Assembly: GCA_001687465.1 (NCBI GenBank)
Contig: LVLI01000912.1
Location: forward strand, 1 to 33,860
Direction: 5' to 3'
Source: Halocafeteria seosinensis
Taxonomy: Eukaryota > Sar > Bigyra > Bicosoecida
DNA: 33,860 nt
Below, in pieces: positions 7,579-33,860 of the stretch (its first letter is position 1; each line of letters begins with the position of its first letter). A program made the position numbers and the translations under genes. The notes under the pieces are model-generated. The model had not been told where the DNA came from and made no database searches. It saw only the letters and a list, made by a program, of their open reading frames with translations.

Positions 7579-10500
7579 TCAAATGGTATAAAATGATTCA
7601 ACAGAGCGTCTAACATCCGGACTCTGGCTAGGACCTTGTGAGAATTGATGCCTTGCCTTAGTCGAATTTTCCTGAGCTCTAGTAGGCGGAGGGCTCCCCA
7701 GTGAGTCTTCCCAAGTTGTCGGAGTAAGCGGGTCCTTACTATACCCTGTTACTTTCGCTGAGGTGAGCGGTTCTTTGTCGCCGCAAAAGCGCGTATCCAG
7801 TCGCCCTCTGGGAGTTGTCTCATATACGAGTTGATGTTCATCTGATCTATCGTCTACAATAGGTGAGCTGGAGACCATACTGCGCAGGTGTAGAATCCGT
7901 TTCCGAAGATTATCTCCTAGATGAAGATTTCCGCCATGCTTGTGATAGTACCCTTGGTTGGTTTTCGAAGGAGGTCCGTCATATGGTGTCTCCATAACCC
8001 TACTAGGATGCTTCGTTAACGAATCGCCAACATTTTGCTGGTTCTCTCGGAACTTGTGTGCAGGCGTTTTGAGCTGCTTATCATCTTCTTCAGACGACAA
8101 ATGAGACTGATCCAGGACATTTCTATTCTCATCTTTCGATTCACCAAAACTTCCGTCCCAATCGCCATCCTTCCTAGACAACTCACCAATCATATTCATT
8201 GCTTCCTCAATATCCCCTTCACTTAGGTCCTCGAGTTCCCTAGTATCGGCAGTACTGGTGCTAGCTGGGCGAATTTCGTCAGTCTCTTCCCTGTCAAACG
8301 GTTGGTACGTCAAGCTCCTACCATTGAGAAGGTTTCCAATTTGGGACAAGGCCTTTCTGGTATGGCCAGGAGGGCGTTCAGTCGCGCCCATGATGTTTAT
8401 AGTGAGGTCATTCTGGGAAAGTTGGTATTCCAATCGACGAAGGGTCTCCGCATCGGAAGATTTGTAGTCGTCGACAACATGTAGCAGCTCATCTAGTTCT
8501 GATAGGAGACTGTACCGCTTTCGACCTTCTAGAGAAGCCAGGCAGTTTCGTGAGTACACCCGATTCAAGTGTTGGGATCGCATGTCCTCGAAAACCATCC
8601 CAATCCGGTTTTGTGTTAATATACCAAATCTTCTCCTATAATTTCTAAATGAGTCAATCGACTCTCGTTGGTATGCAAGTATCTCACGTTTGCATTCGGC
8701 CTCCTTTTCGCGCAGCCTTCGCTGGAACTCACGCTGCATGTCAAGTGCTTGAGCATTCTTATCCTCAGTTAGTCTTCCCAAGTGCTCATTGATATCTCCT
8801 GCATGCCGGTGCTTCAGTTCTGAAACCAAAGAACGTGTATCTTCCCTCATCATGCTCATCCTCTCTTTCCAAATCCTTTCTACAGCTTTCAATGCTCCCC
8901 GATGCTCGTCGTAGTCTATACTATTTGCATATTTCGCGTTGCCTCCGTCCAACACTGCTCTATGGTTATACAACATGCGTTTTAGTTTCTTGTTTTGTGC
9001 AGCCATTTGATGGAAAACTGACTGTTTATGACGGTGAAGCGACTGATCAAGACTTTCCGCGAAACTCTTCACTGAGGTAACAAGACTGGCGACACAGCGG
9101 GCGATGTGCACAAATCTCGATTCCAGATGCTCGTAGTCATCGCGAAGTTCACGATTCTCGTCTTCCAACAGACGCAGGCATTGACTAGTATAATTTACGC
9201 TGGCCGACTGCGATCGAACAGCTCCCATTACTGTGTCCTTGGTTCTTTCGAGCTCCGAGAGTTCGTGGGACCATTGAGCCGTAATTGACGCAGAGATATC
9301 ACGGAACTCTGACGAGAGCCCAACAGAGCGATCCCTAAGTATCTTAGCATTAGTGATGATGCTGATTCTAGGCTGAGCTGCTGCAACTTGAGAATCGTCC
9401 ACAGAAGATAACTCTTGGCTTGTCGAGGAAGCGTTAGTGTGAGTCGGCTTATCGAGGTCAAAAGAAGTTAATGTTTTCAATATTGAGCTCTGCATGAGAT
9501 CGAAGTCCAGCAACGTCCGTTGGAAGCGTTCAGCGATGGCATCTGCCACCTCTTTATGGGACGAAGACAGACGGCAGAACTCAGTCTTCACTCTCCGTGC
9601 TTCCGTTGTTGGTACCAAAGGACTATCCCGGTTAACTGACATCTCATTAAGACGCGAAGCAGCCGAGAGCGACGCGGGTTGAGCAGATTGAAGAGGACGT
9701 CGAGACAACGAACAACGATGGAAGGAAATGAAGTCCACGATACTCTCGACGTCTGTCCTACAAGCATTCCTTATCTCTTCGTACTCGCCTCGAAGATAGC
9801 CAACCAGATATTGCACAAGCTTAGCTTCCCGGCGGACAGCAAAGCGGTCTGAGACATGGCAAACTTGCTCCCGAATACAAACATCGACGGCAGGATTAGT
9901 CTTCCTTAAATTGCCAGGTCGTGGTAGAGAACGCTTTAACGAGTCTGTGTACGACCTGAGACGATCAATGTCAAGCGATGCCTCCTCAAAGCAGACAGCA
10001 AGCGGTTGTGTTATAGAACGAGCAATGTCGGCAATTTGTGTGACATCCCGGTGGGTGATCTTAAGTGAGCTCCGGGGGAGGTGACACTGTCGAAAATGAC
10101 ACAATGACGTTTGTAAGCGGGCTTTGCAGCACTCTATATTACCGAGACGTTCCATCAGATTTTCCATTTTTCGCTCAATGGATATGAAAGTGTCATGGAG
10201 TTCGGTTTGAGCCTGCAAAATCAGTCCATATACATCCGTTGCAATTTTTTTCATCGCTTGTGAAAGTCTGCAATGCCGAGACTGCGTCCGTTGGCTCTCG
10301 TTGTGCATTCGTTGAATCCAAGGGAGCATTTTGTTCACAGCATTTCTCACAGCAGCCCGGCGTTTCGATTTTAGTTTCTTATGCTCTACGTATTGAAGCC
10401 GTTGTTGCAAAGCTCTCAGGCGAGATCTGTATGATTGGTAAAGCAGCCTTGCTCTCAAGGCACCCCGCCGAGCAGTACAATCCAACTGAAACCGTGCGGC

Positions 10501-12531
10501 GTGTAACTGACGCCGCAGATGAGATGTAGAATCGCAGTAGAAACGATAATGGGTAATTAGAGGACCCAGGGATTGATAGACCAGTCTTGGCATCTCCGGG
10601 ATTTGCAGATTAAAACCTCCCATTAATTCCCGAAGTTCCCTAAAACCTGCTCGTATGCTGGCAAGAGAAGTCCTTGCGTGGGACAGCGTCTGACGGGGAA
10701 TCACTTGCCTCTCACTTTTTGATTTGAGCACAGGTTCTACTTGGTCATTGAAAGGAGCCGCAATAATCAAATCTGGCTTCCTCCCATACCGAATATATAG
10801 CTTCCAGCGCATAAAGTATCGATCCATGAGCGTTGAGTATCGTAGTCTGCCGCATCTTTCCCCGCACTTGTACAACAATGACCTCTCTCGCTGGACTAGC
10901 AATTGAGAAGCCTGGGGACCTCCCCCTTCAGAGCATTTCACTTCCTCCACTATACTCTTCGAGCATTTTGTCACAGATGGTAAAAGACGAGTCTTATTGC
11001 CGCAGCGATTGCGCCACTGATAGAATGCACGAGTGAGGAGGAGTTCTCTCTGTAACGATGTGTGATATCCCAGGAAGTTATTTAACATCCTCCTTGCCGA
11101 TGCAAGCTTAGTCTCTATACCTGAACCCTCTCTGATCTCGTCTTTTACGGTGTCTCTTTGTCTACAACAGCTACGCGCATTGGAGCCATGGACTGATTGT
11201 TGAGTCAGGGAACTAGACACAGCGAGGTGCCTTAAGTCTCTCGATTGTGGGACTTCGAAAGAGACGGTGTGCTGCGCCGTGAGACATGATGTAACATTTT
11301 GGTGCCGAGTCACCGGCTGCAGAGCGAGGGGACTGCATAGAGATTTATTGATCGTCATCGCTAATCGCTCTGGAGGAACTTGAGACGCCAGAGAGTTGCT
11401 CTCACTTGGGTCGTCATATGCCCCTGCACCGTGGCTTGGCTCGTGATTGGGGTTGGCGTATCCTTCGCCCACTACATTACGCTCATGTATACGCTCATTC
11501 CAATGTTCTCCATATCGTAACCACGGAGAAGTATCTTCGCAAATGTCTGACACCGTCTTCAGCGGTGATGCGAACAAAGAGTGACTGTGGTGATAATGTT
11601 TCGAATCCGATGGAGTCGCTTCCTTTGCTGAATATGGAAAAGATGTTTCCCCTTCATCGACCACGTCTTCTGCCATGTAGCGAATCAGACGAACGAGTAC
11701 ACGTGAACGACACTTAGAGTACTGAGAGATGTGTTTCGCTAATTTGTTCCTGTCCTTCAGAATCTGATGCTGACAATCGAAGACGATTACTTTGAGGATA
11801 GCCCTAAATCTCTTTCTTTCATGTGAACCATTTGCGTTTTCGCCTGTCTCTCCAACACCACTAGACTCCTTCCTGAAAATATCCGGTATACGATTCTCAA
11901 TCGTTTTTAGAACCTGGAGTAGCAGTTCCTGCAACAGCGTTTCGCACCAAATTTTGGGCAATCTCGGCAATCTTTCATACTCTTCCCAGTATGGCTGGTA
12001 CTGCTGACGATAGTTCTGATCATCTTCATGCGTGTGCTTTCTCCCTCTAGTTGCAGGTTCCTCGAGCCGTCTCAGACGGCTCACTACTGCCGTTAGCAAA
12101 TCCTGGGAAGTTAGATCCTCTTCGGTCACGGGTGTGGATTTCTTCTCTTCCTTCTCATGTTCTGCAACCAATGCATCTGACGAGTTCGAGACAGAATGAG
12201 GGGGATAAGATGGCACATTCTGTTTGTCAGAGGCCATATCCAATAAACGCAGGGGCGCTGAGGAGCCATGTACTCGCCTCTCGAGGGTCTCTCGGACGGA
12301 TTTCAAGATGTGCACAATCACATGACGCGCAATACGCTCTCGTATATGGGTCGAAGTGCCCTGAACAGCGCCGGAAGAGGCTTTCTTGGCGTCATGATGT
12401 CTCCTGCTGGCACTTTTCGATCGTTTCCGGCCCTTCTGGGGAGGATTATAGTAGTGATAATACGCATTTTCCACCGTAGTCAAGGCATAATGGTCGAGCA
12501 ATCGAAGAGCAGGATCTGGAGATGTCTGCAT
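7579..12531 (-). CDS. 1650-residue coiled-coil protein, Sfi1-like motifs
   Basis: A single uninterrupted minus-strand frame. The first ATG is at 12531 (MQTSPDPALRLLDHYAL). The N-terminal 300 residues hold several amphipathic helical blocks separated by disordered, charged stretches. Two short segments, LLTRAFYQWRNRC (about residue 500) and LMDRYFMRWKLYIRYG (about 580), resemble the Phe/Leu...Trp-Arg/Lys units of Sfi1-type centrin-binding repeats. From about 620 to 1390 the protein is almost wholly helical and coiled-coil-like (for example the ELKHRHAGDINEHLGRL region). The last 260 residues are Ser/Pro/Glu-rich and look disordered, with possible proline-directed phosphorylation sites such as LTPTTWEDSLGSPPP. 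A structural role at a microtubule-organising or spindle-pole body would fit, but this is inference; two motifs are few for Sfi1. Intronless, unlike most neighbours. Confidence 0.8.
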   Translation of the reverse strand: MQTSPDPALRLLDHYALTTVENAYYHYYNPPQKGRKRSKSASRRHHDAKKASSGAVQGTSTHIRERIARHVIVHILKSVRETLERRVHGSSAPLRLLDMASDKQNVPSYPPHSVSNSSDALVAEHEKEEKKSTPVTEEDLTSQDLLTAVVSRLRRLEEPATRGRKHTHEDDQNYRQQYQPYWEEYERLPRLPKIWCETLLQELLLQVLKTIENRIPDIFRKESSGVGETGENANGSHERKRFRAILKVIVFDCQHQILKDRNKLAKHISQYSKCRSRVLVRLIRYMAEDVVDEGETSFPYSAKEATPSDSKHYHHSHSLFASPLKTVSDICEDTSPWLRYGEHWNERIHERNVVGEGYANPNHEPSHGAGAYDDPSESNSLASQVPPERLAMTINKSLCSPLALQPVTRHQNVTSCLTAQHTVSFEVPQSRDLRHLAVSSSLTQQSVHGSNARSCCRQRDTVKDEIREGSGIETKLASARRMLNNFLGYHTSLQRELLLTRAFYQWRNRCGNKTRLLPSVTKCSKSIVEEVKCSEGGGPQASQLLVQRERSLLYKCGERCGRLRYSTLMDRYFMRWKLYIRYGRKPDLIIAAPFNDQVEPVLKSKSERQVIPRQTLSHARTSLASIRAGFRELRELMGGFNLQIPEMPRLVYQSLGPLITHYRFYCDSTSHLRRQLHAARFQLDCTARRGALRARLLYQSYRSRLRALQQRLQYVEHKKLKSKRRAAVRNAVNKMLPWIQRMHNESQRTQSRHCRLSQAMKKIATDVYGLILQAQTELHDTFISIERKMENLMERLGNIECCKARLQTSLCHFRQCHLPRSSLKITHRDVTQIADIARSITQPLAVCFEEASLDIDRLRSYTDSLKRSLPRPGNLRKTNPAVDVCIREQVCHVSDRFAVRREAKLVQYLVGYLRGEYEEIRNACRTDVESIVDFISFHRCSLSRRPLQSAQPASLSAASRLNEMSVNRDSPLVPTTEARRVKTEFCRLSSSHKEVADAIAERFQRTLLDFDLMQSSILKTLTSFDLDKPTHTNASSTSQELSSVDDSQVAAAQPRISIITNAKILRDRSVGLSSEFRDISASITAQWSHELSELERTKDTVMGAVRSQSASVNYTSQCLRLLEDENRELRDDYEHLESRFVHIARCVASLVTSVKSFAESLDQSLHRHKQSVFHQMAAQNKKLKRMLYNHRAVLDGGNAKYANSIDYDEHRGALKAVERIWKERMSMMREDTRSLVSELKHRHAGDINEHLGRLTEDKNAQALDMQREFQRRLREKEAECKREILAYQRESIDSFRNYRRRFGILTQNRIGMVFEDMRSQHLNRVYSRNCLASLEGRKRYSLLSELDELLHVVDDYKSSDAETLRRLEYQLSQNDLTINIMGATERPPGHTRKALSQIGNLLNGRSLTYQPFDREETDEIRPASTSTADTRELEDLSEGDIEEAMNMIGELSRKDGDWDGSFGESKDENRNVLDQSHLSSEEDDKQLKTPAHKFRENQQNVGDSLTKHPSRVMETPYDGPPSKTNQGYYHKHGGNLHLGDNLRKRILHLRSMVSSSPIVDDRSDEHQLVYETTPRGRLDTRFCGDKEPLTSAKVTGYSKDPLTPTTWEDSLGSPPPTRAQENSTKARHQFSQGPSQSPDVRRSVESFYTI

Positions 12532-13599
12532 CTTGCCATGCAATGGTAAATGAGCGCTTGAGTATCAACTTGCAGCTCAATCGATCGATGATCCTCAATT
12601 ATGCCCTCATGATGCCCCGATACCGGGCTCAATCAAAGCTACCAGTGTGTATCACTATGACCTACATACAATCAATACCATGGGAGCTGTGGTCTCTGGT
12701 GTGCTTCATTCATGAAGGCGCACTACACACACCGCGTATTTGAATTTGAATCCAGCATTCCAGTTTGGGAATCATCCACTGGGGCGTGGGGCACAACTTT
12801 TTTTTTTCTCGTGCCACCGTGGCAGTGCCACGCCCGCCCAAAACACTTGGCATGCCAACGTGGCATGTCAAAATTACAAAATGTTCTTTACGTATGTAAT
12901 GCGGCGCGTTTTCGCCGGTATTCTTCGTAGTGTTGGTCTATTTTTGTTTCAAATTTTTAGCTAGAAGCGCCTTCCTGTAGTTTTCCTTCCTTCTTTATTC
13001 TCTCTTCCACGCCGCTGCTTCTTTGGAGGTACCCTAGGAATCCTAGGATGCAGAAATAGGGGCCGATTCTAAATGTGCTCTGCAGCTTTCGGCTGTCATA
13101 CGAACTGAGACGAAAGCGTAGTAAAACAGGGAGGTTATTCCCTCTTAATCCACTTGGATCCAATAGCAGCGCCTTCGAGGTTTACACCTAGCACATCGAT
13201 TTCGGATTCATAGACCCATTGTTCGCTTTCTGATTGATGATGGTACCCAAAGCGCCGGCGGCGTGGACCTTCTCGCACGTTTTAAGGTGCACCGTGCATC
13301 GGCATGTATGAAGTCGTTCTGGCTGTCACATCATTATCGCCAAAGTTGCACACGACCACTTCAAATCTTTTGATACTTGGATCTCGGGTTGCGCCATTCT
13401 CAATAAGGAAATATTCCTATGTTCAGTGCGGTGCTTTGCCCATTCGAATTTGAATCCTTGAGCCTTTTTGTGTTGTTTGGTAGTTTTCTTCCGGGGGGGC
13501 AGCGGAGGTCCTCCGGAGGAGGCTGGTGGCATGCCACGGTTGGCACAACATAGCCTTCTTGGCACAAGTGGCGCACTTTTAATCTTCAATATATTCTTC
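12532..13599. other. Gene-free region with short inverted repeats
   Basis: No gene is supported. The stretch 12800-12870 is rich in small palindromes (GTGCCACCGTGGCAG; CATGCCAACGTGGCATG), and similar ones lie at about 13528-13552 (GGTGGCATGCCACGGTTGG). A 16-base string, ATTTGAATTTGAATCC or a one-mismatch form, occurs at 12738-12753 and 13442-13457. These may be internal or terminal parts of a non-autonomous DNA transposon, or of the hAT element to the right, but I cannot delimit its left end. Confidence 0.4.
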
Positions 13600-14232: not shown

Positions 14233-14569
14233 ATTGCTCTTCCCGCCTGTAACTTACAGGCTACCGGTAGTACCGGAGCTCTGCGAGTGTAGGTCAGCGG
14301 GCTGAGCCCGCTCAACAGTTCTTAAAGAACACTCGAAGCTGCGCCATCCTATACTGGTGATACTATGTATTGTACAACAATCTATATACTGTAGCATTTT
14401 GCTATTCAGCATATGATAAACACGAAGTGACTTTTTCTTTTACAGATACCACCGAATTGGCAATACGATACCGTTAAGGTATACACGTACCCGAAACTAA
14501 CTACCGGACTCCTACGTCTACCTGACAAGCTATCTACGCACTCTGGATGAAGTGGAGACAAAACGAAAA
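14233..14569. other. Upstream region of the beta-helix gene
   Basis: No gene is seen. A good acceptor-like tract (TTTTTCTTTTACAG) ends near 14446, so a non-coding 5' exon or spliced leader region upstream of the beta-helix gene is possible, but no matching GTANG donor is evident. Confidence 0.35.
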
Positions 14570-16558
14570 ATGCCTTGCTGTGGATCTAATCGCGCTTTTT
14601 ATCGGACTTTCATGCTTGCTTTATCTGTAATATGTTCAGAAAGCTCTCTCGTCGTAGCGACAAACTTTAGGAGCCATGTCATCCAGGGACTCATTCCGTG
14701 CATTGAATGGGATCCGAGGGTATTGACGTTTCGCTTACTTTGCAGTTTCAAGTGGGCGGACTTTTTTAGTGAGACCGATTTCATTGCATTGCAGGCAAAT
14801 GAGACGTTCGCTGGAGATGGCTCTTTAACGATTGACCTGGTCGGAAACACAGGGGAATATAGGGGGCTATTTATGACGGAGGCTTCATCGATGGATGAAG
14901 CGGTGACCATCAGGAATGTACATACGGAAAACGGTAAAACATTTGAATTGGCAGGTTTCATTCTAGCATGGGGATCAAATCACTATGTTGTAGAAAACTG
15001 TAGCTCCACGGGGGAAATTAGTGGCCGAGATTCTGGGGGAATAGCAGGGTTAGCAGACTTGTCCTTATCCGGCTCCTTCGGTATCATCCGATCTTGTAGA
15101 AGTTCTGGGACTATATCTGGCAAATTCGCCGGCGGTATAATTGCAAGTGCAGCAGGATCCAATGATGGACGTTTCGAAATCCAAAACTGCCATTCTTCGG
15201 GGGACATAACTGGGGAAGGAGCAGGTGGAATAGCGGGGCGGAGGACCGGGGATTCTGGCACGGTCGTGATTGCCAACTGTTGTTCAACAGGTACCATACA
15301 AGGCAAAAGTAGCGGTGGTATCTGCGGAAAAGAAACGGCCTATTTTGGTGAATCCTTTCTCATGTCGGGCTGCTTCTCCATGGGTGATATTTTGGGTTTC
15401 AACGCTGGTGGTCTGGTAGGCGATTACTCCGCGCACCATTCGAAATCTTTCGTGATTGCAAATTCCTATACTCGAGGTCACATAACGGGCTTTTCGGCTG
15501 GAGGGCTCGCTGGAGCCAATTTTGCTCAAGCGTCTGGTACAGCGTTGTTAGAAAATGTGTATGCCTCAGGGAATATTTCTGGTGAGTACGCTGGGGGCAT
15601 CACAGTAACGACACAGCAGGAATCCTTGGTCGTTAAGAACTCAGTTTTTTCCTCGGAACCGTTCGTTGGTTTTGACGGAACGTTTGAGAACATAAATAGT
15701 AGCAGCAGTATCCGTGACATCCTTGGGAGACTTTTCTCCGTAGATGGCGACGTAAAATGGGGAGACCAATGGGAAGCTCGGCCACGAGGATTGCCGACCT
15801 TGACCGGACATGAAGGTCTATGCGAAGCCGTCCAAGCCCGAACTGGATTTCTCGCTGAATCTGTCGCGCCTTCATTCAGTCCTAGCAACATGGCAACTGT
15901 GTCCCCTTCCATTACACCATCTCCTTCGGGGAGTATCCCGCCTTCATGCAGTCCTAGCAACACGGCAACGGTATCCCCTTCCACGACACCATCTCGTTCA
16001 GGGACTATTACGCCTTCGTCGAGTCCTAGCAACACGGCAACGGTATCTGCGTCCACTACAACCACCAGCACTCCCAGCTTCACAGGTACTTCCAGCTTAA
16101 CGAAAACCGTATCTCCCACCCCTCCATCGACCTGGACTGCTATTCCTGGTCTTGTGATCGTCACTGTTTTCGTTAATAACCGCCCCAGTGGAAATGCCAG
16201 TGTCTTCCCATGTCTCAAACGCGGAATCCTGGTTTCAATCTTGGGAAGCAAAGAGTTCAAACCCACTGATGTCAATGCAACCAATGTGCGTGTCGGTACT
16301 CGTTCTTTCGTCTCCAAAGGCCAAGGGTGTCGTCCTTCTTCGAACATACAACAAAAGGACGTTAACGGAGATGATAGATTAGACATGCTATTCCACTGTG
16401 TCGGAAAGCTTGGTCTCTCTTTGAAGAATGAAACACAAGTATTGGTTGCGGTGGGAATGAACCATGAGGGACAACGCTATGAGGGACATGCAAGGGTACG
16501 AATAATTGGGAGCCAAGCAAGAAGAGAACAGCTCGGTGCTCTCGAGATCCACAACTAA
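14570..16558 (+). CDS. Secreted/surface beta-helix protein with bacterial-type C-terminal domain
   Basis: 662 residues, intronless, first ATG at 14570 (MPCCGSNRAF). The N-terminus has a hydrophobic stretch (FMLALSVICSESSLVVA) that can serve as a signal peptide. From about residue 143 to 350 there are seven GLUG-like repeats spaced 25-35 residues, such as NCSSTGEISGRDSGGIAG and NSYTRGHITGFSAGGLAG, expected to fold as a right-handed beta-solenoid. A Ser/Thr/Pro-rich linker (about 425-510) carries three copies of a SPSNTATVS-type unit and is a likely O-glycosylation region. The C-terminal domain (about 515-650) has SGNASVFPCLKRGILVSILG, VNATNVRVG and a DVNGDDRLDMLFHC motif. That resembles a calcium-loop-containing domain common on bacterial and archaeal surface proteins (V-AIL...VRFG...DVNGDG...). 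It probably acts at the cell surface or wall. Lateral origin of the C-terminal domain is inference. Confidence 0.75.
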   Translation: MPCCGSNRAFYRTFMLALSVICSESSLVVATNFRSHVIQGLIPCIEWDPRVLTFRLLCSFKWADFFSETDFIALQANETFAGDGSLTIDLVGNTGEYRGLFMTEASSMDEAVTIRNVHTENGKTFELAGFILAWGSNHYVVENCSSTGEISGRDSGGIAGLADLSLSGSFGIIRSCRSSGTISGKFAGGIIASAAGSNDGRFEIQNCHSSGDITGEGAGGIAGRRTGDSGTVVIANCCSTGTIQGKSSGGICGKETAYFGESFLMSGCFSMGDILGFNAGGLVGDYSAHHSKSFVIANSYTRGHITGFSAGGLAGANFAQASGTALLENVYASGNISGEYAGGITVTTQQESLVVKNSVFSSEPFVGFDGTFENINSSSSIRDILGRLFSVDGDVKWGDQWEARPRGLPTLTGHEGLCEAVQARTGFLAESVAPSFSPSNMATVSPSITPSPSGSIPPSCSPSNTATVSPSTTPSRSGTITPSSSPSNTATVSASTTTTSTPSFTGTSSLTKTVSPTPPSTWTAIPGLVIVTVFVNNRPSGNASVFPCLKRGILVSILGSKEFKPTDVNATNVRVGTRSFVSKGQGCRPSSNIQQKDVNGDDRLDMLFHCVGKLGLSLKNETQVLVAVGMNHEGQRYEGHARVRIIGSQARREQLGALEIHN

Positions 16559-22548: not shown

Positions 22549-23270
22549 ACACACGTCACACGCTAAATTCAAATCAAGGAAGGTTGAACTTCTGCTCGTG
22601 AGTGAGTCGTATCTGGTTGCTGATTATTTTTATAACTAGCGCTTTGGGAGGAACGAATGTACAATCCTGCACTGGAGCCTTGACAGTTCAAGGGATGTCA
22701 GGGAAGTACCTATGATACCATACCACTTGTATAGCCGGAGTCACGGTGACTTCGTCACCCCTGTGGTGTTGCTGCACAATATGTGAATATGACATACATG
22801 CACATCTCCTCCAGGTAGCATGGTAGTCAATGATGAAGCACTCCATCCCTACGCTTTTCTGTACAACATGATGCACCCTCTCCTCCATTCATTCCTGAAG
22901 AGTCCCAGCCCAGCTTCACAAAGAGGGACTCAGTCGGGAGCGCGTCGCGTGCCATCCCATAAGCGCGTGTGTCTGTCTGACGTGTGGGGGTGGCAAACTA
23001 TTTGAGTATACTATTGGGATGGTGTTGATTGCGCAAGGACATACGCAGTTTTGTATATATGCGCATTATCTTTCTCAAAGAGAGCGGTTCATTTCACTAC
23101 GGTAGTAGTTTGTGTGCATGGGTGGGGGTGTCTGCCGTCAAGAGTTCCAGAAGAGTGGGGAGACGAGTACTCTATTCTACGAAAAGACATCAAGACACTT
23201 TTTTCTTCTTAGTGAAATATTGACACAGGGAGCAGGCACGTAGTTAACGGAGGAAGAAATAGAAAGGAGC
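22549..23270. other. Gap without a supported gene
   Basis: Space between the Tubby-like gene and the carrier gene, both on the plus strand. A 66-codon minus ORF with ATG at 22888 (MEERVHHVVQKSVG) is the only candidate and resembles nothing I know. A perfect small hairpin GGTGAC-TTC-GTCACC lies at 22745-22759. The carrier promoter should be in the right part. Confidence 0.4.
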
Positions 23271-24680
23271 ATGCCGTCACCTGTATCATCCTCCGGGCCC
23301 TCGACGGGAAATGGTGGAGCGACGACGCAGCTTTCCCAGGCGCAAGGCGCACGCAGCAAGCACTCCCGTATATTTGCAATGATGTCCACAACACCGAGCT
23401 CCTCGCAGGGCAATCCGGCGCAACTGCAGCTTTGGCATCGATCCATGTCTGCTAGCTTCGGGGCTGTTCTGGTGTCACTGTTCACGACACCACTGGATGT
23501 GGTCCGGGTGAGAATGCAATCCTCCGGCACTGTGTCAGATTCAGCGTTACGCTCTCCCAAAAACAGTACAGCAAAGAGGAAAATGCTGACAAATGGGGAG
23601 GCTGGCCTGTATTACAATAGCTCCCCTTTCTCATCCGTGTACGGGAGACGCTATTTTGCATGCGAACGCCTTGTGGCCCACTCGCACTGCGTTAAGAAAG
23701 CCTTCGATAGGACGGTTCATAGACCGCGGAACTTATTGGAGCTACGACAGTTTTTCTCTACTTTCAAATACCATCCATGTATGAACGCATTCCATCCCAA
23801 GTCTACCTTGGCGTTCGAGGCGGCGCTACTTGGTCCGGCGACAAGTGCCTATAAACCTCATAAGATTGGCTCGAAATTGTCTCCAGATATTAGAAAGTCC
23901 CTTACTTCGCCCCGTCCGAAAGCGTTGTCCGCGCTGAAGACATTACAAAGTGTTGTCCGGAAAGAAGGAATAAGAAGCCTTTGGAGCGGATTGTCTCCAT
24001 CGTTGGTAATGGCTGTACCGTCGACCACCCTTTACTTCACAGCATATGACGAACTGAAGCTGACCATGGAGGGATATACGCAAGGTTCTCATTTGGAGCA
24101 GTATATTCCTCTAATTGCTGGATCTACGGCCCGCACTGCTGCTGCAGCTGTTACATCCCCTTTGGAGCTTGTGAGAACGCAAATGCAGAGTCGGAAGCTC
24201 GACCGTGGAATCATACAGAGCTTCCAACATGAAATTGGATCTAACGGGTACATGTCGTTATGGAGGGGTCTTGTGCCCACGCTATATCGGGATGTACCAT
24301 TCTCCGGGCTATATTGGTTTTCCTACGAGAAAATCAAGAGGCATTTGAGAACGCCCTTACTGCCCCCCAAAGATAACACGACGTTCTTCGATGAATGGAA
24401 ACTGGCATTCTTGTCTGGATCATTAGCTGGTAGTTCCGCTGCAATTGTGACGACTCCCTTCGATGTGGTCAAAACGAGAAGACAAGCGGTGCTGACGGAT
24501 AAGCCGCTCTCTAAAGCCTCATCGAGCACCATTGCGTTGTTGCAGCAGATTGTCAAAAAGGAGGGGATTTCAGCATTATTTTCAGGCTTGTTACCTCGGT
24601 TACTCAAGGTATCGCCCGCATGCGCCATCATGATTTCTAGCTACGAACTCGGCAAAATGGTGTTTGCTAATCAGCAGTGA
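23271..24680 (+). CDS. Mitochondrial carrier, SLC25A39/40/MTM1 type
   Basis: 469 residues, intronless, ATG at 23271. It has three carrier repeats with signatures TTPLDVVRVRMQ (from about 72), TSPLELVRTQMQ (repeat 2) and TTPFDVVKTRRQ (repeat 3). Each is followed by the typical second half, for example EGIRSLWSGLSPSLVMAVPS and TTLYFTAYDELK. A very long loop of about 130 residues (88-215) between the first two helices, and the sequence LWSGL..SLVMAVP..TLYFTAYD, mark it as the SLC25A39/40 (yeast MTM1) subfamily. Animal members import glutathione into mitochondria; yeast MTM1 is tied to manganese/iron handling. The loop holds three cysteines (C131, C140, C170); in human SLC25A39 loop cysteines sense iron-sulfur status. 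The N-terminal 50 residues are Ser/Thr-rich. It should lie in the inner mitochondrial membrane. Confidence 0.9.
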   Translation: MPSPVSSSGPSTGNGGATTQLSQAQGARSKHSRIFAMMSTTPSSSQGNPAQLQLWHRSMSASFGAVLVSLFTTPLDVVRVRMQSSGTVSDSALRSPKNSTAKRKMLTNGEAGLYYNSSPFSSVYGRRYFACERLVAHSHCVKKAFDRTVHRPRNLLELRQFFSTFKYHPCMNAFHPKSTLAFEAALLGPATSAYKPHKIGSKLSPDIRKSLTSPRPKALSALKTLQSVVRKEGIRSLWSGLSPSLVMAVPSTTLYFTAYDELKLTMEGYTQGSHLEQYIPLIAGSTARTAAAAVTSPLELVRTQMQSRKLDRGIIQSFQHEIGSNGYMSLWRGLVPTLYRDVPFSGLYWFSYEKIKRHLRTPLLPPKDNTTFFDEWKLAFLSGSLAGSSAAIVTTPFDVVKTRRQAVLTDKPLSKASSSTIALLQQIVKKEGISALFSGLLPRLLKVSPACAIMISSYELGKMVFANQQ

Positions 24681-27909: not shown

Positions 27910-29752
27910 TTAATCGAACAGCTCAGAGGGTTGGATAATATCATCAATCTTAAGGATCATCTTCACCAACTGCGTAGCCAACATGAACTGCTGTTGCTTA
28001 CCGTGCAGCGTTTCAAATACATGGTGCTCTCGCATATCTGAGAAGGGAACAATAACAGAGAGAAGAGACAGTGCCGTATAGCCTCTAGTACGCTTTGATC
28101 CGTTACTAATCTCCACTTACCATTTGTGCCACTCTGTGTACAGTCGACCCCCAAGAAAGGGTTCTTTTCGTTTATCTGTCGACTCTTTAGTTCGGAAAGC
28201 GTAGCGATGGGTGAGAAACCGCTGTTTTCGGATAAGGCGAGAGGGATGTCCTCCAACGCCTCAGAAAAGGCTCGGTATGCATACTGTTCCATTCCTGATA
28301 TAGAGTCGGCTGTGTCAGAAACCTCGAGCGAGCAAGCAATTTCCGCTGCACCACCTCCATATACAATCCTGTTGTCTCTTATCAAATTCCTAGCAACACA
28401 CATGGCGTCATGAAGGGAACGCTTCGCTTCGTCGACAACCATCCGNTTCCCGCCTCTGACGAAGACAGTAAGTGCTTTCGTATTGGAACAGTCTTCGATA
28501 ACTAGCATTTTATCGGAAGTGGTTCCAAACTGTACTTCCTTGACTTTCCCGGCCTTTCCTAGTTTCTCAGGTGTGAGCTCACTGAAGCGCGGGGCAATCC
28601 TGCCACCTGTGGCAATGGCGATGAGTTCGAGTTCCATACCGCCTACCCAACGTACGGCTGGAAGATTGTTTTGCAACAGGAGGTGGTTTGCTTCATCGTC
28701 AAATCCCCATTGACAAACCACACAGTTAGCCCCAGAATCCTTCACCTTCTGGACCATCTCCGTGAAGTATTCCTGTTCTTGTTGTTGCAGTTTTTCATAG
28801 TCTTCACGAGTCGTTATATCCAAGTGGTGCTTTGTCTTTGGTTTTGGTGGTTCAAAAGGACACGCCAGGATTGCAATTTTCGCATCCTTAACTTCTTTTG
28901 GCATTTGCGGATGGCTAAAGTCCTTCTCGATGACGATTCCTCGAATGAGTTCCGTATCCTCCATCTTTCCGCCGGGTTTGCCTTCGACCTTGATATGATC
29001 AAAGTTCACATCTTTCCGCTCGAAGTCAGCGACACCACAGATGGCATCTACAGCTACTTCAGCCATTTTGCGTTGCATACGGTTGACAATTTTCGATGAA
29101 AGCGTCGTCATCGCCGTCTGATACAGAGGTTCTAAATTGTTTCTATCAAATTCTATAGTTTGAGAAATCTGCGTTTGAAGGTTCACGCCACTTGGCAATG
29201 CTAGTCAAAGACCGGAGGATTACAGTTCAACATACCTCTGCTAGTTTCTCCACTGACTTTGAGCATGCTTTTTCAAAACCTTCTGAAATTCTGACTGGGT
29301 GTATGCCTCGATCCAGTAGATGTTGTGCTTTCTCCAACAACGCCCCTGCTAGCACTACTACTCCTGTCGTGCCGTCTCCTATCTCGTCATCTTGTGACGT
29401 TGCGAGTTCCACAATTAGTCGCGCTATTTGATGCTCCACCTCCATTTTTTGCAGAATCGTCGCTCCATCGTTAGAGATTGTGACATCTCCATCAGAGTTC
29501 ACCAACATTTTGTCCATGCCTTTGGGACCCAATGACGTCCGTAGAATGTTAGTTACCGTTCGGGCAGCTACAATGTTAGCCTGCAAGATCGATCCGCCAC
29601 ACAATCACATGATCAATAACCGCTTCCTTGTTTGTTCCCCACAAAGCTTATATACGTACTTTCTGAGCCTCGATGCCTTTCAGGCGCGACTTCTTCTCCT
29701 GGTCGCGGATGATGATGTAGGGGCGTCCATAATCGTCAAAAACGAGCGACAT
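27910..29752 (-). CDS. CCT5: T-complex protein 1 subunit epsilon (CCT5)
   Basis: Exons (minus) 29752-29660, 29580-29236, 29168-28121 and 28037-27910; introns 79, 67 and 83 nt with donors GTACGT, GTATGT, GTAAGT. The joined frame is 537 residues, against about 540 in animals. It begins [19 protein letters not shown], followed by the group II chaperonin motifs [10 protein letters not shown] (48-57), [13 protein letters not shown], the ATP-binding EIGDGTTG (97-104) and, near the C-terminus, GGGAAEI. The strings [12 protein letters not shown] and [16 protein letters not shown] identify the epsilon subunit. It is one of eight subunits of the cytosolic CCT/TRiC ring that folds actin and tubulin. The base at 28446 is N, leaving residue 387 undetermined, next to a conserved RGG in the apical-to-intermediate region. 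Intact otherwise. Confidence 0.97.
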
Positions 29753-31280: not shown

Positions 31281-32784
31281 TTAGCGGGACGGGACACTCC
31301 TTGCTGCCCGTATCTCTTCCTCGTCTTTGTCTAACTTGCGGCTCCACTTCTCCGGCAAAGGATTGTTTCTCAGCCAATTATCGAATCGTCGTTCGTTTGC
31401 TCTATCATCAGACTTTGAAGCCTGCTTTGATCTTTCAGTTACTTCATAATCATCTTCACCAGCTTCTGTCTCAAATTCCTCTTTATTTTCCCGATAAAGG
31501 TCTTCAAGGGCCATTGCCTCCCGGGTTTCTGCAAACTATGGTTTTAAGTTTCCAGGTATACCGCTAGCACAAAATGAAGTGAAGCATACCGGAGTCAAAA
31601 ATGCTGACGATTATGTTTCCACAATCAACAACCATCCAGTCGTCCATATCGCGTCCCTCTACTGCCCAATGTCCTACTTCATGAGGAGGTTCAAGCTCCC
31701 TATCTTGCAACTGTTACGATCGTCTCCAACGCCTCATAAGAGTACATATTACGCAACCTCAATTGCTGAAACTTACGGCTTTAACTAACATGTCCCCGAT
31801 CTTTCGCATGTGCCCGACAGAACGGCCTGTAACACATATGAGATAGTCGCCCAACCCGTTCTCTCCAAGCTCAACGCATTGGACATCCTGTCCTCTCTCT
31901 GTTTCGAGAGCTTTTGTTATATCGTCAACGGTCAAAGGCTCGCTGGAACACACGCGTTAATTTGCTTGAGAGTCCTTTCAAGACTACAGCAACAGATGAA
32001 CATACCCCTTGCGAACTGGGATGCGAACCGGTCGCATTTCCTGCTCAGGAGGGACCCACGAGGGGTTAGTGCCATCATTCTGTAAAAACAGAAAAATACG
32101 ATTGCTTTATTCATTGATGGTAGCAGTTGCTAATAGCAGCACATACAGTAAAGTTTGTCTCCGCGTCAGCTCCCTTGTACATGCGAGCGAGTGCATCGTA
32201 GGCCTTGGCCGCTTTTTCAGCAGTGTCGTACATCCCTCCTGATATTTCGTTATCGTTGTGCACTAACACAGCTTCGAAATTCTTCGTTTCTGTGTCATAT
32301 ATTACACCTCTGGGATGCGAAGCAAAGCCTATTATCTACGACTAGATCGATGACAGAGATAACCTCCAGCTTACTTGTACTTCCTGACATTCTTCATCCT
32401 TGATACAAGTTTCTCCGCCGCCCCTGGATCAAAGAAGGATTTCGCTGCCATGTATGCCTCATGTGCCTCTTGTGCGGTGGAGAACGATCCTGCACAGGCC
32501 ACTCATTGCCCAGCTGGGAACTGAAGGCAAGCTTCACAGTCCTACATACCCAGGTACATCAACTTCCCATTCACCATGATACGCGACATCCAATGCTGCC
32601 GTTGCTTATTGTAATATGCCCCAGGGAGCTTCTCACCGTCCTTGTTGTTAGGTGTACGAGCTGGATTTTGTTCCTTGGTGGTCCCCTTTGGCTTTCCTCC
32701 AGTACTGAAATCACATACCGGCACGATAAGGGACTGATTCCTTCTGGTCGTTGACCAAGCTAATGTCCGGCCAAATTGCTTCAT
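31281..32784 (-). CDS. AP2-like domains fused to RsfS/Iojap ribosome silencing factor
   Basis: Seven exons (minus): 32784-32550, 32489-32375, 32309-32147, 32079-32006, 31942-31777, 31710-31590, 31528-31281; introns 60, 65, 67, 63, 66 and 61 nt, all with GTANG donors and CAG acceptors. The total is 373 codons plus stop, in one frame. The N-terminus (MKQFGRTLAWSTTRRNQSL) is basic, without acids, followed by FSTGG: a likely mitochondrial presequence. AP2-like unit 1 (about 55-99): GAYYNKQRQHWMSRI, GKLMYLGSFSTAQEAHEAY. Unit 2 (about 118-170) is weaker: GVIYDTETKNFEAVLV, GGMYDTAEKAAKAYDALA. RsfS domain (about 197-305): TVDDITKALE, LGDYLICVTGRSVGHMRKI, VEGRDMDDWMVVDCGNIIV and FDSETREAMALEDLY. RsfS (MALSU1 in human mitochondria) binds uL14 and keeps the large ribosomal subunit from joining. 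The C-terminal 70 residues are acidic then basic. If intron 4 were retained, an AP2-only protein would end at 31984. Confidence 0.85.
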
Positions 32785-33008: not shown

Positions 33009-33051
33009 AACGTTCGTTGAACGCCCGGGCGGCCCAGCAACATATAATACT

Positions 33052-33144
33052 AAAGGAAAAATGGTGAATTTTTGATGTAATGACTTTTCGCTACGCTCAA
33101 AGCCAAACATCAAAAACGCTGACGCTATTCACCATTTTTCCTTT
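33052..33144. repeat. Inverted repeat forming a long imperfect hairpin
   Basis: AAAGGAAAAATGGTGAAT at 33052-33069 is the exact reverse complement of 33127-33144. Inside it, TTTTGATGT (33070-33078) pairs with ACATCAAAA (33107-33115). The 93-base unit is thus a foldback resembling a small MITE or hairpin. Part of the arm, ATTCACCATTTTTC, recurs at 33267-33280. Confidence 0.85.
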
Positions 33145-33860
33145 CTCCATATAAAGTGTAATTTCAAAGTGAAATTTTNAAAAGTGAAATTTTCAAAAGT
33201 GTAATTTTAAAATTATAAAGTTAAATTTTAAGATTTTGATTTATATAAATTTTGAAGTGTAAAAAAATTCACCATTTTTCAAAAGTGGACAAAATCTTAT
33301 ATAAAATCTTATGTTGAAACTTTTATAATTTAATTCTATATATTTTATTAAAATCTCTTTAAGTAGAAATTTTAATGATTTTGTGAAATCGTTTTGATTG
33401 TAAGTATTGTTTTACCATCAGCGGTAACCAGAAGCTGTATATCATTTTGGATAATGTATATGTATGATTTAACGTTTATTTGTCGTGTATTAGCGATTTC
33501 CCACCACACCAACCAAACAGAGCAAGATTGACTTGATTGAATAGGCAATCTTTTGATTGTTCGGTATTTGTGGGTCATTTACAAGGTGAAATAGGCAATG
33601 AACAACTACTTTGTACATTGATTACTCTTCTCAACTCTCTAAAGAACCTATTAAAAGTATTACATTTTGATTACATCTTATATTTATTTAGCAGGGTCAA
33701 TTAGAAATTCAATCTTTGGATTGAACAGGCAATCTTTTGATTGTTTGGTTGGGAAAAAATGGTATTGACTCTATACAGCATATAGAAAATGTAATCAAGC
33801 CCTCTCCGTTGTTGATGAGGTAGTTTATTGTTTGATTTATCTGTGTGTCAAGTATTGGAC
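33145..33860. other. AT-rich tail with tandem and direct repeats
   Basis: Base composition falls abruptly to strongly AT-rich, unlike the rest of the window. 33153-33235 holds degenerate tandem copies of an AAAAGTGAAATTTT-type unit (one unresolved base at 33179). A 31-base direct repeat, starting GATTGAATAGGCAATC, lies at 33535-33565 and 33719-33749 with two mismatches, and contains the small hairpin CAATC-TTTT-GATTG. No protein-like ORF is visible. Candidates are an inserted mobile element, organelle-derived DNA or a chromosome-level repeat; the window ends before this can be decided. Confidence 0.6.

What the first reader, a model, noticed from the sequence alone, without database searches (positions are those of the whole stretch)
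31281..32784. AP2-like domains fused to a mitochondrial ribosome silencing factor (RsfS)
Six introns placed by the local GTANG/CAG rule join seven exons into one 373-residue frame that runs from two AP2-like units straight into a complete RsfS/Iojap domain. The phase-2 junction at intron 4 (GG|C) is what links the two parts; the total length is an exact multiple of three and conserved RsfS motifs are restored at introns 5 and 6. AP2 domains are known as plant and apicomplexan DNA-binding modules and in homing endonucleases; RsfS acts on uL14 of the large ribosomal subunit. I recall AP2-fold proteins being reported as structural parts of apicomplexan mitoribosomes, which would make a mitoribosome-binding AP2 domain plausible here. 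I do not know of a described AP2-RsfS fusion.
Basis: partly seen in the sequence, partly recalled or inferred. Interest (0 to 1): 0.85.

Follow-up and report, generated by a model that had tools for sequence, protein, structure and literature searches.

The report
AP2 domains fused to mitochondrial RsfS
A single-celled, apparently non-photosynthetic eukaryote carries a gene, seen in RNA-derived data, that joins a fold best known from plant transcription factors to a mitochondrial-type ribosome-silencing protein; the pairing recurs in many related database proteins, and the copy next to the ribosome part seems to have lost its DNA-gripping face.

Summary
Splicing six GT-AG introns on the minus strand (32784-31281) gives a 373-residue protein, identical to a EukProt protein filed under GECG01002183.1. 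Pfam finds two AP2 stretches and a full RsfS domain; the AlphaFold model supports both folds. The fusion is conserved: 36 of 36 family proteins with an RsfS match (window's included) carry the second AP2 unit (AP2-2) upstream of it; so do 18 of 18 found with a query that left nearly all of AP2 out. AP2-2 is net negative in 36 of 36 copies scored (most distant member, P0026, left out: it is basic), while 12 of 12 other AP2 units of the host are neutral or positive. AP2-1 is mostly basic and missing from one clade. Best reading: a MALSU1-type factor on the mitoribosomal large subunit whose AP2 arm became a protein-binding or steric module. Location and ribosome binding are inferred, not shown. 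The host is probably the bicosoecid Halocafeteria seosinensis (accession prefix recalled). No paper with this fusion was found.

The parts
31281..32784 (-). whole gene: seven exons, six introns, 373-residue AP2-AP2-RsfS protein
   Evidence: splicing; identical transcript-derived protein
32550..32784 (-). exon 1: Arg-rich N-terminus (likely mitochondrial presequence, inferred) and first part of AP2-1
32431..32625 (-). AP2-1, residues 54-98, split by intron 1 (32549-32490); net charge +3
32375..32489 (-). exon 2
32147..32382 (-). AP2-2, residues 115-171, split by intron 2 (32374-32310); net charge -3, residues at DNA-contact positions mostly replaced
32006..32079 (-). exon 4: linker between AP2-2 and RsfS; P181 invariant, W179 and P182 at 90% or more in alignment A2; low model confidence here (pLDDT 52-60)
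31943..32005 (-). intron 4, phase 2, joining the AP2 part to the RsfS part
   Evidence: absent from the transcript-derived protein
31494..31923 (-). RsfS domain, residues 203-303 (Pfam), split by introns 5 (31776-31711) and 6 (31589-31529)
31281..31528 (-). exon 7: end of RsfS and C-terminal helices with a conserved motif (W343 and W353 at 90% or more in A1, P350 in A2)

Best explanation
It is a nucleus-encoded mitochondrial ribosome factor of the RsfS/MALSU1 type with an N-terminal AP2 arm. Shown here: the gene, its splicing (through an RNA-derived record), the domains, the fused state in many relatives, the near-constant AP2-2-to-RsfS spacing in most of them, and the loss of the basic face in AP2-2. 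Inferred: import into mitochondria by the Arg-rich N-terminus; docking of RsfS on uL14m of the large subunit, where it keeps the small subunit off during assembly, recycling or low activity; AP2-2 working as an acidic protein-binding or steric block beside RsfS at the subunit interface; AP2-1, where kept, adding a basic contact, perhaps to rRNA.
Against: No localisation, binding or structure data for this protein; no targeting predictor was run. A crude search for an R-x-[FYL]-[ST] cleavage-like motif hit 10 of 33 N-termini, the window's protein not among them. The linker between AP2-2 and RsfS has pLDDT 52-60 and pTM is 0.50, so a fixed placing of AP2-2 on RsfS is not shown. Charge loss tells what AP2-2 is unlikely to do, not what it does. 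A review says that the human and kinetoplastid module does not bind RNA (PMC8998825 passage), so an rRNA role for AP2-1 has no precedent in this module. P0026, the most distant member, keeps a basic AP2 (+6; sheet +7).
Confidence: 0.6

Rival explanations
1. The AP2 arm grips mitochondrial rRNA, as AP2 proteins of the Toxoplasma mitoribosome are reported to do, and anchors RsfS on the large subunit.
For: Toxoplasma mtAP2 proteins contact rRNA, mostly by arginines (PMC11652630 passages); AP2-1 is net positive in 20 of 24 members, the other four (P0013, P0017, P0022, P0024) being pieces cut short; Foldseek lists four Toxoplasma mitoribosome chains (9g6k_Lk, 9fi8_HR, 9i05_Xn, 9hqv_Yn) at ranks 31, 32, 34 and 35, E 0.02-0.05 (the listing does not name the proteins, that they are the AP2 ones is my assumption).
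Against: AP2-2, the unit always kept, is acidic with no basic sheet outside P0026; AP2-1 is missing in one clade. The four Toxoplasma matches have TM-scores of 0.12-0.13 by the query. The second Toxoplasma paper says that its four AP2 proteins meet rRNA not by the canonical DNA-binding features but by extensions (PMC11742926 passage).
Confidence: 0.2
2. The AP2 tandem still binds DNA: a dual protein that couples mtDNA or nuclear transcription to ribosome state.
For: AP2 is best known as a DNA-binding domain, and the nearest solved tandem is WRI1 with DNA.
Against: At positions aligned with AtERF1 contacts (contact list recalled) AP2-2 has R170 to E in 27 of 36 and W172 to S in 32 of 36, and beside them L173 to G in 34 of 36; the 12 other host units keep a positive sheet. 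Those host units differ from AtERF1 at several of these positions too, so single residues weigh less than charge. AP2-1 was not scored this way.
Confidence: 0.08
3. The AP2 part is a decaying passenger or spacer with no function of its own.
For: AP2-1 is missing in a clade of eight rows.
Against: AP2-2 has invariant columns across 25 rows and is present in 36 of 36 members.
Confidence: 0.08
4. Gene-model or assembly artefact: two neighbouring genes read as one.
For: The frame needs six introns.
Against: Identical RNA-derived protein; the same order of domains in predicted proteins from many other contigs.
Confidence: 0.01

Closest known systems
MALSU1 (human and mouse mitochondrial RsfS)
   Same: RsfS domain, best solved match by sequence and by fold
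   Different: No AP2 is listed for MALSU1; it works with L0R8F8 and mtACP. Whether this host has those partners was not tested
mtAP2-1 to 4 / mL161, mS130, mL143, mL153 of the Toxoplasma mitoribosome
   Same: AP2-fold proteins placed in a mitochondrial ribosome, mS130 with a tandem
   Different: Separate ribosomal proteins, reported as conserved in Myzozoa. The words MALSU1 and RsfS do not occur in either main text. No Toxoplasma chain is listed up to E 10 with the whole-family and AP2-1 profiles, or up to E 1 with AP2-2. No alveolin domain was found in the host genome, so a separate recruitment is likely
AP2/ERF transcription factors (WRI1, TEM1, AtERF1)
   Different: AP2-2 is acidic and lacks most residues at the DNA-contact positions
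kinetoplastid mt-RsfS and fungal Atp25 (RsfS domain with extensions)
   Same: RsfS domain in longer proteins on mitoribosome intermediates (6yxy, 7aoi, 6ywv)
   Different: their extra parts were not examined here

Membership tests
RsfS / MALSU1 (PF02410) | profile match over the whole domain above the curated cut-off | tested here: met
   67.9 bits against 21.6, profile positions 2-98 of 98
RsfS / MALSU1 (PF02410) | RsfS fold | tested here: met
RsfS / MALSU1 (PF02410) | binding to uL14 and block of subunit joining | not testable with these tools
   needs biochemistry or cryo-EM
RsfS / MALSU1 (PF02410) | mitochondrial location | tested here: inconclusive
   6 K/R and 1 D/E in the first 35 residues; no hit of a crude cleavage-like motif; no predictor was run
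AP2 domain (PF00847) | profile match above the curated cut-off | tested here: met
   49.8 bits against 33.3 for the whole protein, two stretches; each alone is under the cut-off
AP2 domain (PF00847) | three-stranded sheet plus helix | tested here: met
AP2/ERF DNA-binding transcription factor | basic DNA-contact face of the sheet | tested here: not met
   for AP2-2: sheet half -5 to +2 in 36 rows, contact positions mostly replaced (P0026 left out, +7); AP2-1 was not scored position by position
Myzozoan mtAP2 mitoribosomal proteins | sequence or fold relation to the Toxoplasma chains | tested here: inconclusive
   no hit by sequence at the cut-offs used; weak fold hits at Foldseek ranks 31, 32, 34, 35

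The most novel reading that the evidence does not exclude
In this lineage an AP2 arm has taken over the job done elsewhere by the separate L0R8F8-mtACP partners of MALSU1: AP2-2, turned acidic and kept mostly 23-25 residues from RsfS, is itself the block that keeps the small mitoribosomal subunit off. This would be a second entry of AP2 folds into a mitoribosome, independent of the Myzozoa and perhaps not tied to fragmented rRNA.
Probability: 0.2. Interest if true: 0.78.

Novelty: new variant of a known kind. Interest (0 to 1): 0.62.

Why it matters
AP2 domains are commonly read as DNA-binding, and such a protein could be annotated as a transcription factor. Here one AP2 unit is coupled to a ribosome-silencing domain in every member found and has lost its basic face. 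With the Toxoplasma mitoribosome, it suggests that AP2 folds entered mitochondrial translation more than once. It also gives a covalent handle on where AP2 sits on the large subunit, since RsfS docks on a known site.

Tried and rejected
Rejected: separate genes or a wrong splice; a plastid RsfS in a red alga (no chlorophyll a/b-binding domain found); an alveolate host (no alveolin domain found; both are exon-by-exon searches, so the second is weak).

Limits: protein searches need shared 5-residue words and lengths in range; only the plant P0028 carries the source labels nr or uniref, but that is not proof of absence. Searches used queries that contain AP2, so their hits are biased towards the fusion; one search is the fairer test. 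The structure alignment used 25 of the 28 proteins then known (P0024, P0027 and plant P0028 left out). The tree used 30 of 36 members; P0024, P0025, P0035-P0038 were dropped for short or broken RsfS. P0026 and P0001 have long branches; the root is not known, so AP2-1 could be a loss or a gain. In one search up to 8 of 36 rows have a gap at a contact column, and some AP2-2 pieces (such as P0031, P0033-P0035) are partial; some host units are cut by introns.

Full report
Observation. The result is one frame of 373 codons and a stop; introns are 60-67 nt, all GTA.G...CAG. A search of about 5.8 billion proteins returned an identical 373-residue protein from EukProt, filed under GECG01002183.1 as a complete ORF. 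By its prefix (recalled) this is a transcriptome assembly record, so the six junctions are supported by RNA. I saw neither reads nor the record itself.

Domains. In the whole protein Pfam gives RsfS at 203-303 (E 9.4e-19, 67.9 bits against a cut-off of 21.6) and AP2 with two stretches (E 4.4e-13, 49.8 against 33.3). Open stretches around single exons already show AP2 (exon 3) and RsfS (exons 5 and 6). By sequence the nearest solved proteins are MALSU1 chains (E 1.1e-9) and, for the AP2 part, WRI1 (E 1.2e-4). With profiles of relatives the AP2-2 unit reaches WRI1 at E 3e-27 and AP2-1 at E 1.6e-8.

Family. Three protein searches yielded 37 proteins of this family, the window's own included, and one plant ERF (P0028). 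P0027 has no RsfS match. Of the other 36, all 36 have AP2-2 upstream of RsfS, and 24 have a recognisable AP2-1; some of the remaining 12 (such as P0023 and P0025) begin close to AP2-2 and may be cut short. Searches used queries that hold AP2. One search used residues 112-288 of P0020, which hold RsfS, the C-terminus and only the last few residues of AP2-2 (47-117): all 18 hits carry AP2-2. Its candidates had to be 0.55-1.75 times the query's length, so short bacterial RsfS proteins were out of range. The AP2-2 to RsfS gap is 23-25 residues in 27 of 36 and 27-60 in nine; the AP2-1 to AP2-2 gap spans 17-130 in 24. A tree of 30 of the 36 places eight single-AP2 rows together (87/86), which fits one loss of AP2-1 if the root lies elsewhere, and puts the window protein next to P0022 and P0023 (96/88); P0026 has a very long branch. 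Only P0001 is labelled eukprot; the others are labelled jgi, lgn, ncbi or ena. Their organisms and habitats are not known to me.

Loss of the basic face. AP2-2 pieces of 36 proteins (P0027 included; P0026 and P0028 shown apart) and 12 other AP2 units of the host genome were aligned to one profile. Net charge is -7 to -2 in 36 of 36 and 0 to +6 in 12 of 12 host units; the sheet half is -5 to +2 against +3 to +7. P0026 goes against this: its sheet half is +7. At columns aligned with AtERF1 residues (alignment; the contact list is recalled) R170 is E in 27 of 36, W172 is S in 32 of 36 and E160 is V in 30 of 36 (4 gaps); L173, beside them, is G in 34 of 36 but L in 10 of 12 host units. Host AP2 units also differ from AtERF1 at several of these positions, so charge is the stronger argument. 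Up to 8 of 36 rows have a gap at a contact column, and some pieces are partial. AP2-1 is net positive in 20 of 24; the other four (P0013, P0017, P0022, P0024) are pieces cut short. The acidity is unlikely to be a salt adaptation of one host, since it is shared across the family.

Host. The genome has 30.6 Mb in 605 contigs. No chlorophyll a/b-binding and no alveolin domain was found. Six ectoine synthase exon matches lie at two loci, over the cut-off; six P2X receptor matches lie on three contigs, four of them on C103. Halocafeteria seosinensis is reported with ectoine genes, though not it alone among protists (PMC5796728 passages), and with 13 P2X genes (PMC5447177 passages); a genome exists (PMC6972860 passage). 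I recall GECG as its transcriptome prefix; no paper text confirmed this. Against it: the only TPI found is not fused to GAPDH (the fusion as a stramenopile mark is recalled). I put the host call at about 0.8, a little lower than in my draft because the ectoine genes are not unique.

Mechanism. In animals MALSU1 with L0R8F8 and mtACP sits on uL14m, bL19m and the SRL, keeps the small subunit away and contacts GTPBP10 (PMC8492066 and PMC10693566 passages); a review holds the module to be shared with kinetoplastids and says it does not bind RNA (PMC8998825 passage). The fusion most likely does the RsfS part of this job, with the AP2 arm as a neighbour at the interface. The N-terminus has 6 K/R and 1 D/E in 35 residues; 17 of 33 Met-started rows have no acid there and 4 have one, but a crude cleavage-like motif hits only 10 of 33 and not the window's protein. 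An acidic AP2-2 suits a protein partner or a steric block better than rRNA. AP2-1 may touch rRNA. None of this has been tested.

Known or new. The two Toxoplasma structure papers (passages seen) establish AP2 proteins in a mitoribosome, reported as kept in Myzozoa; the words MALSU1 and RsfS occur in neither main text. They differ on how the AP2 proteins meet rRNA: arginines of AP2 domains in one, extensions and not the canonical features in the other. Full-text searches for RsfS with 'AP2 domain' gave two papers, unrelated by title, and for Iojap with AP2 and mitochondri one, unrelated by title; the library lacks most subscription journals. The architecture is thus a new variant of a known kind as far as I could see.

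Noticed in passing
window 33050-33860: AT-rich end of the contig (GC 0.21 at 33200-33499, against 0.44-0.49 around the gene) with an 18-nt perfect inverted repeat (33052-33069 / 33127-33144), a further overlapping inverted copy at 33263-33280 and short direct repeats; looks like the edge of a mobile element or an integrated stretch.
   Followed up: partly
window 23244-24680 +: mitochondrial carrier protein in one open frame, E 1.1e-63.
   Followed up: no
window 27963-29204 -: TCP-1/cpn60 chaperonin family match, E 5.1e-104, with an X in the translation.
   Followed up: no
window 7579-12564 -: 1661-residue open frame with no Pfam match at E 0.001.
   Followed up: no
window 14501-16558 +: GLUG-motif match (E 1.9e-4) in an open frame with a Ser/Thr/Pro-rich tract.
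   Followed up: no
protein P0026: distant AP2-RsfS protein whose single AP2 is still basic and which has a similar W-x-P-P stretch after it; a possible older stage of the fusion, or an independent one.
   Followed up: partly
L012 (G000:C161:35046-35605): another pair of AP2 units in one long open frame (1020 residues) of the host genome.
   Followed up: no
G000:C33:55312-55779 and C93:18298-18788: ectoine synthase matches split over several exons at two loci in a eukaryotic genome.
   Followed up: partly
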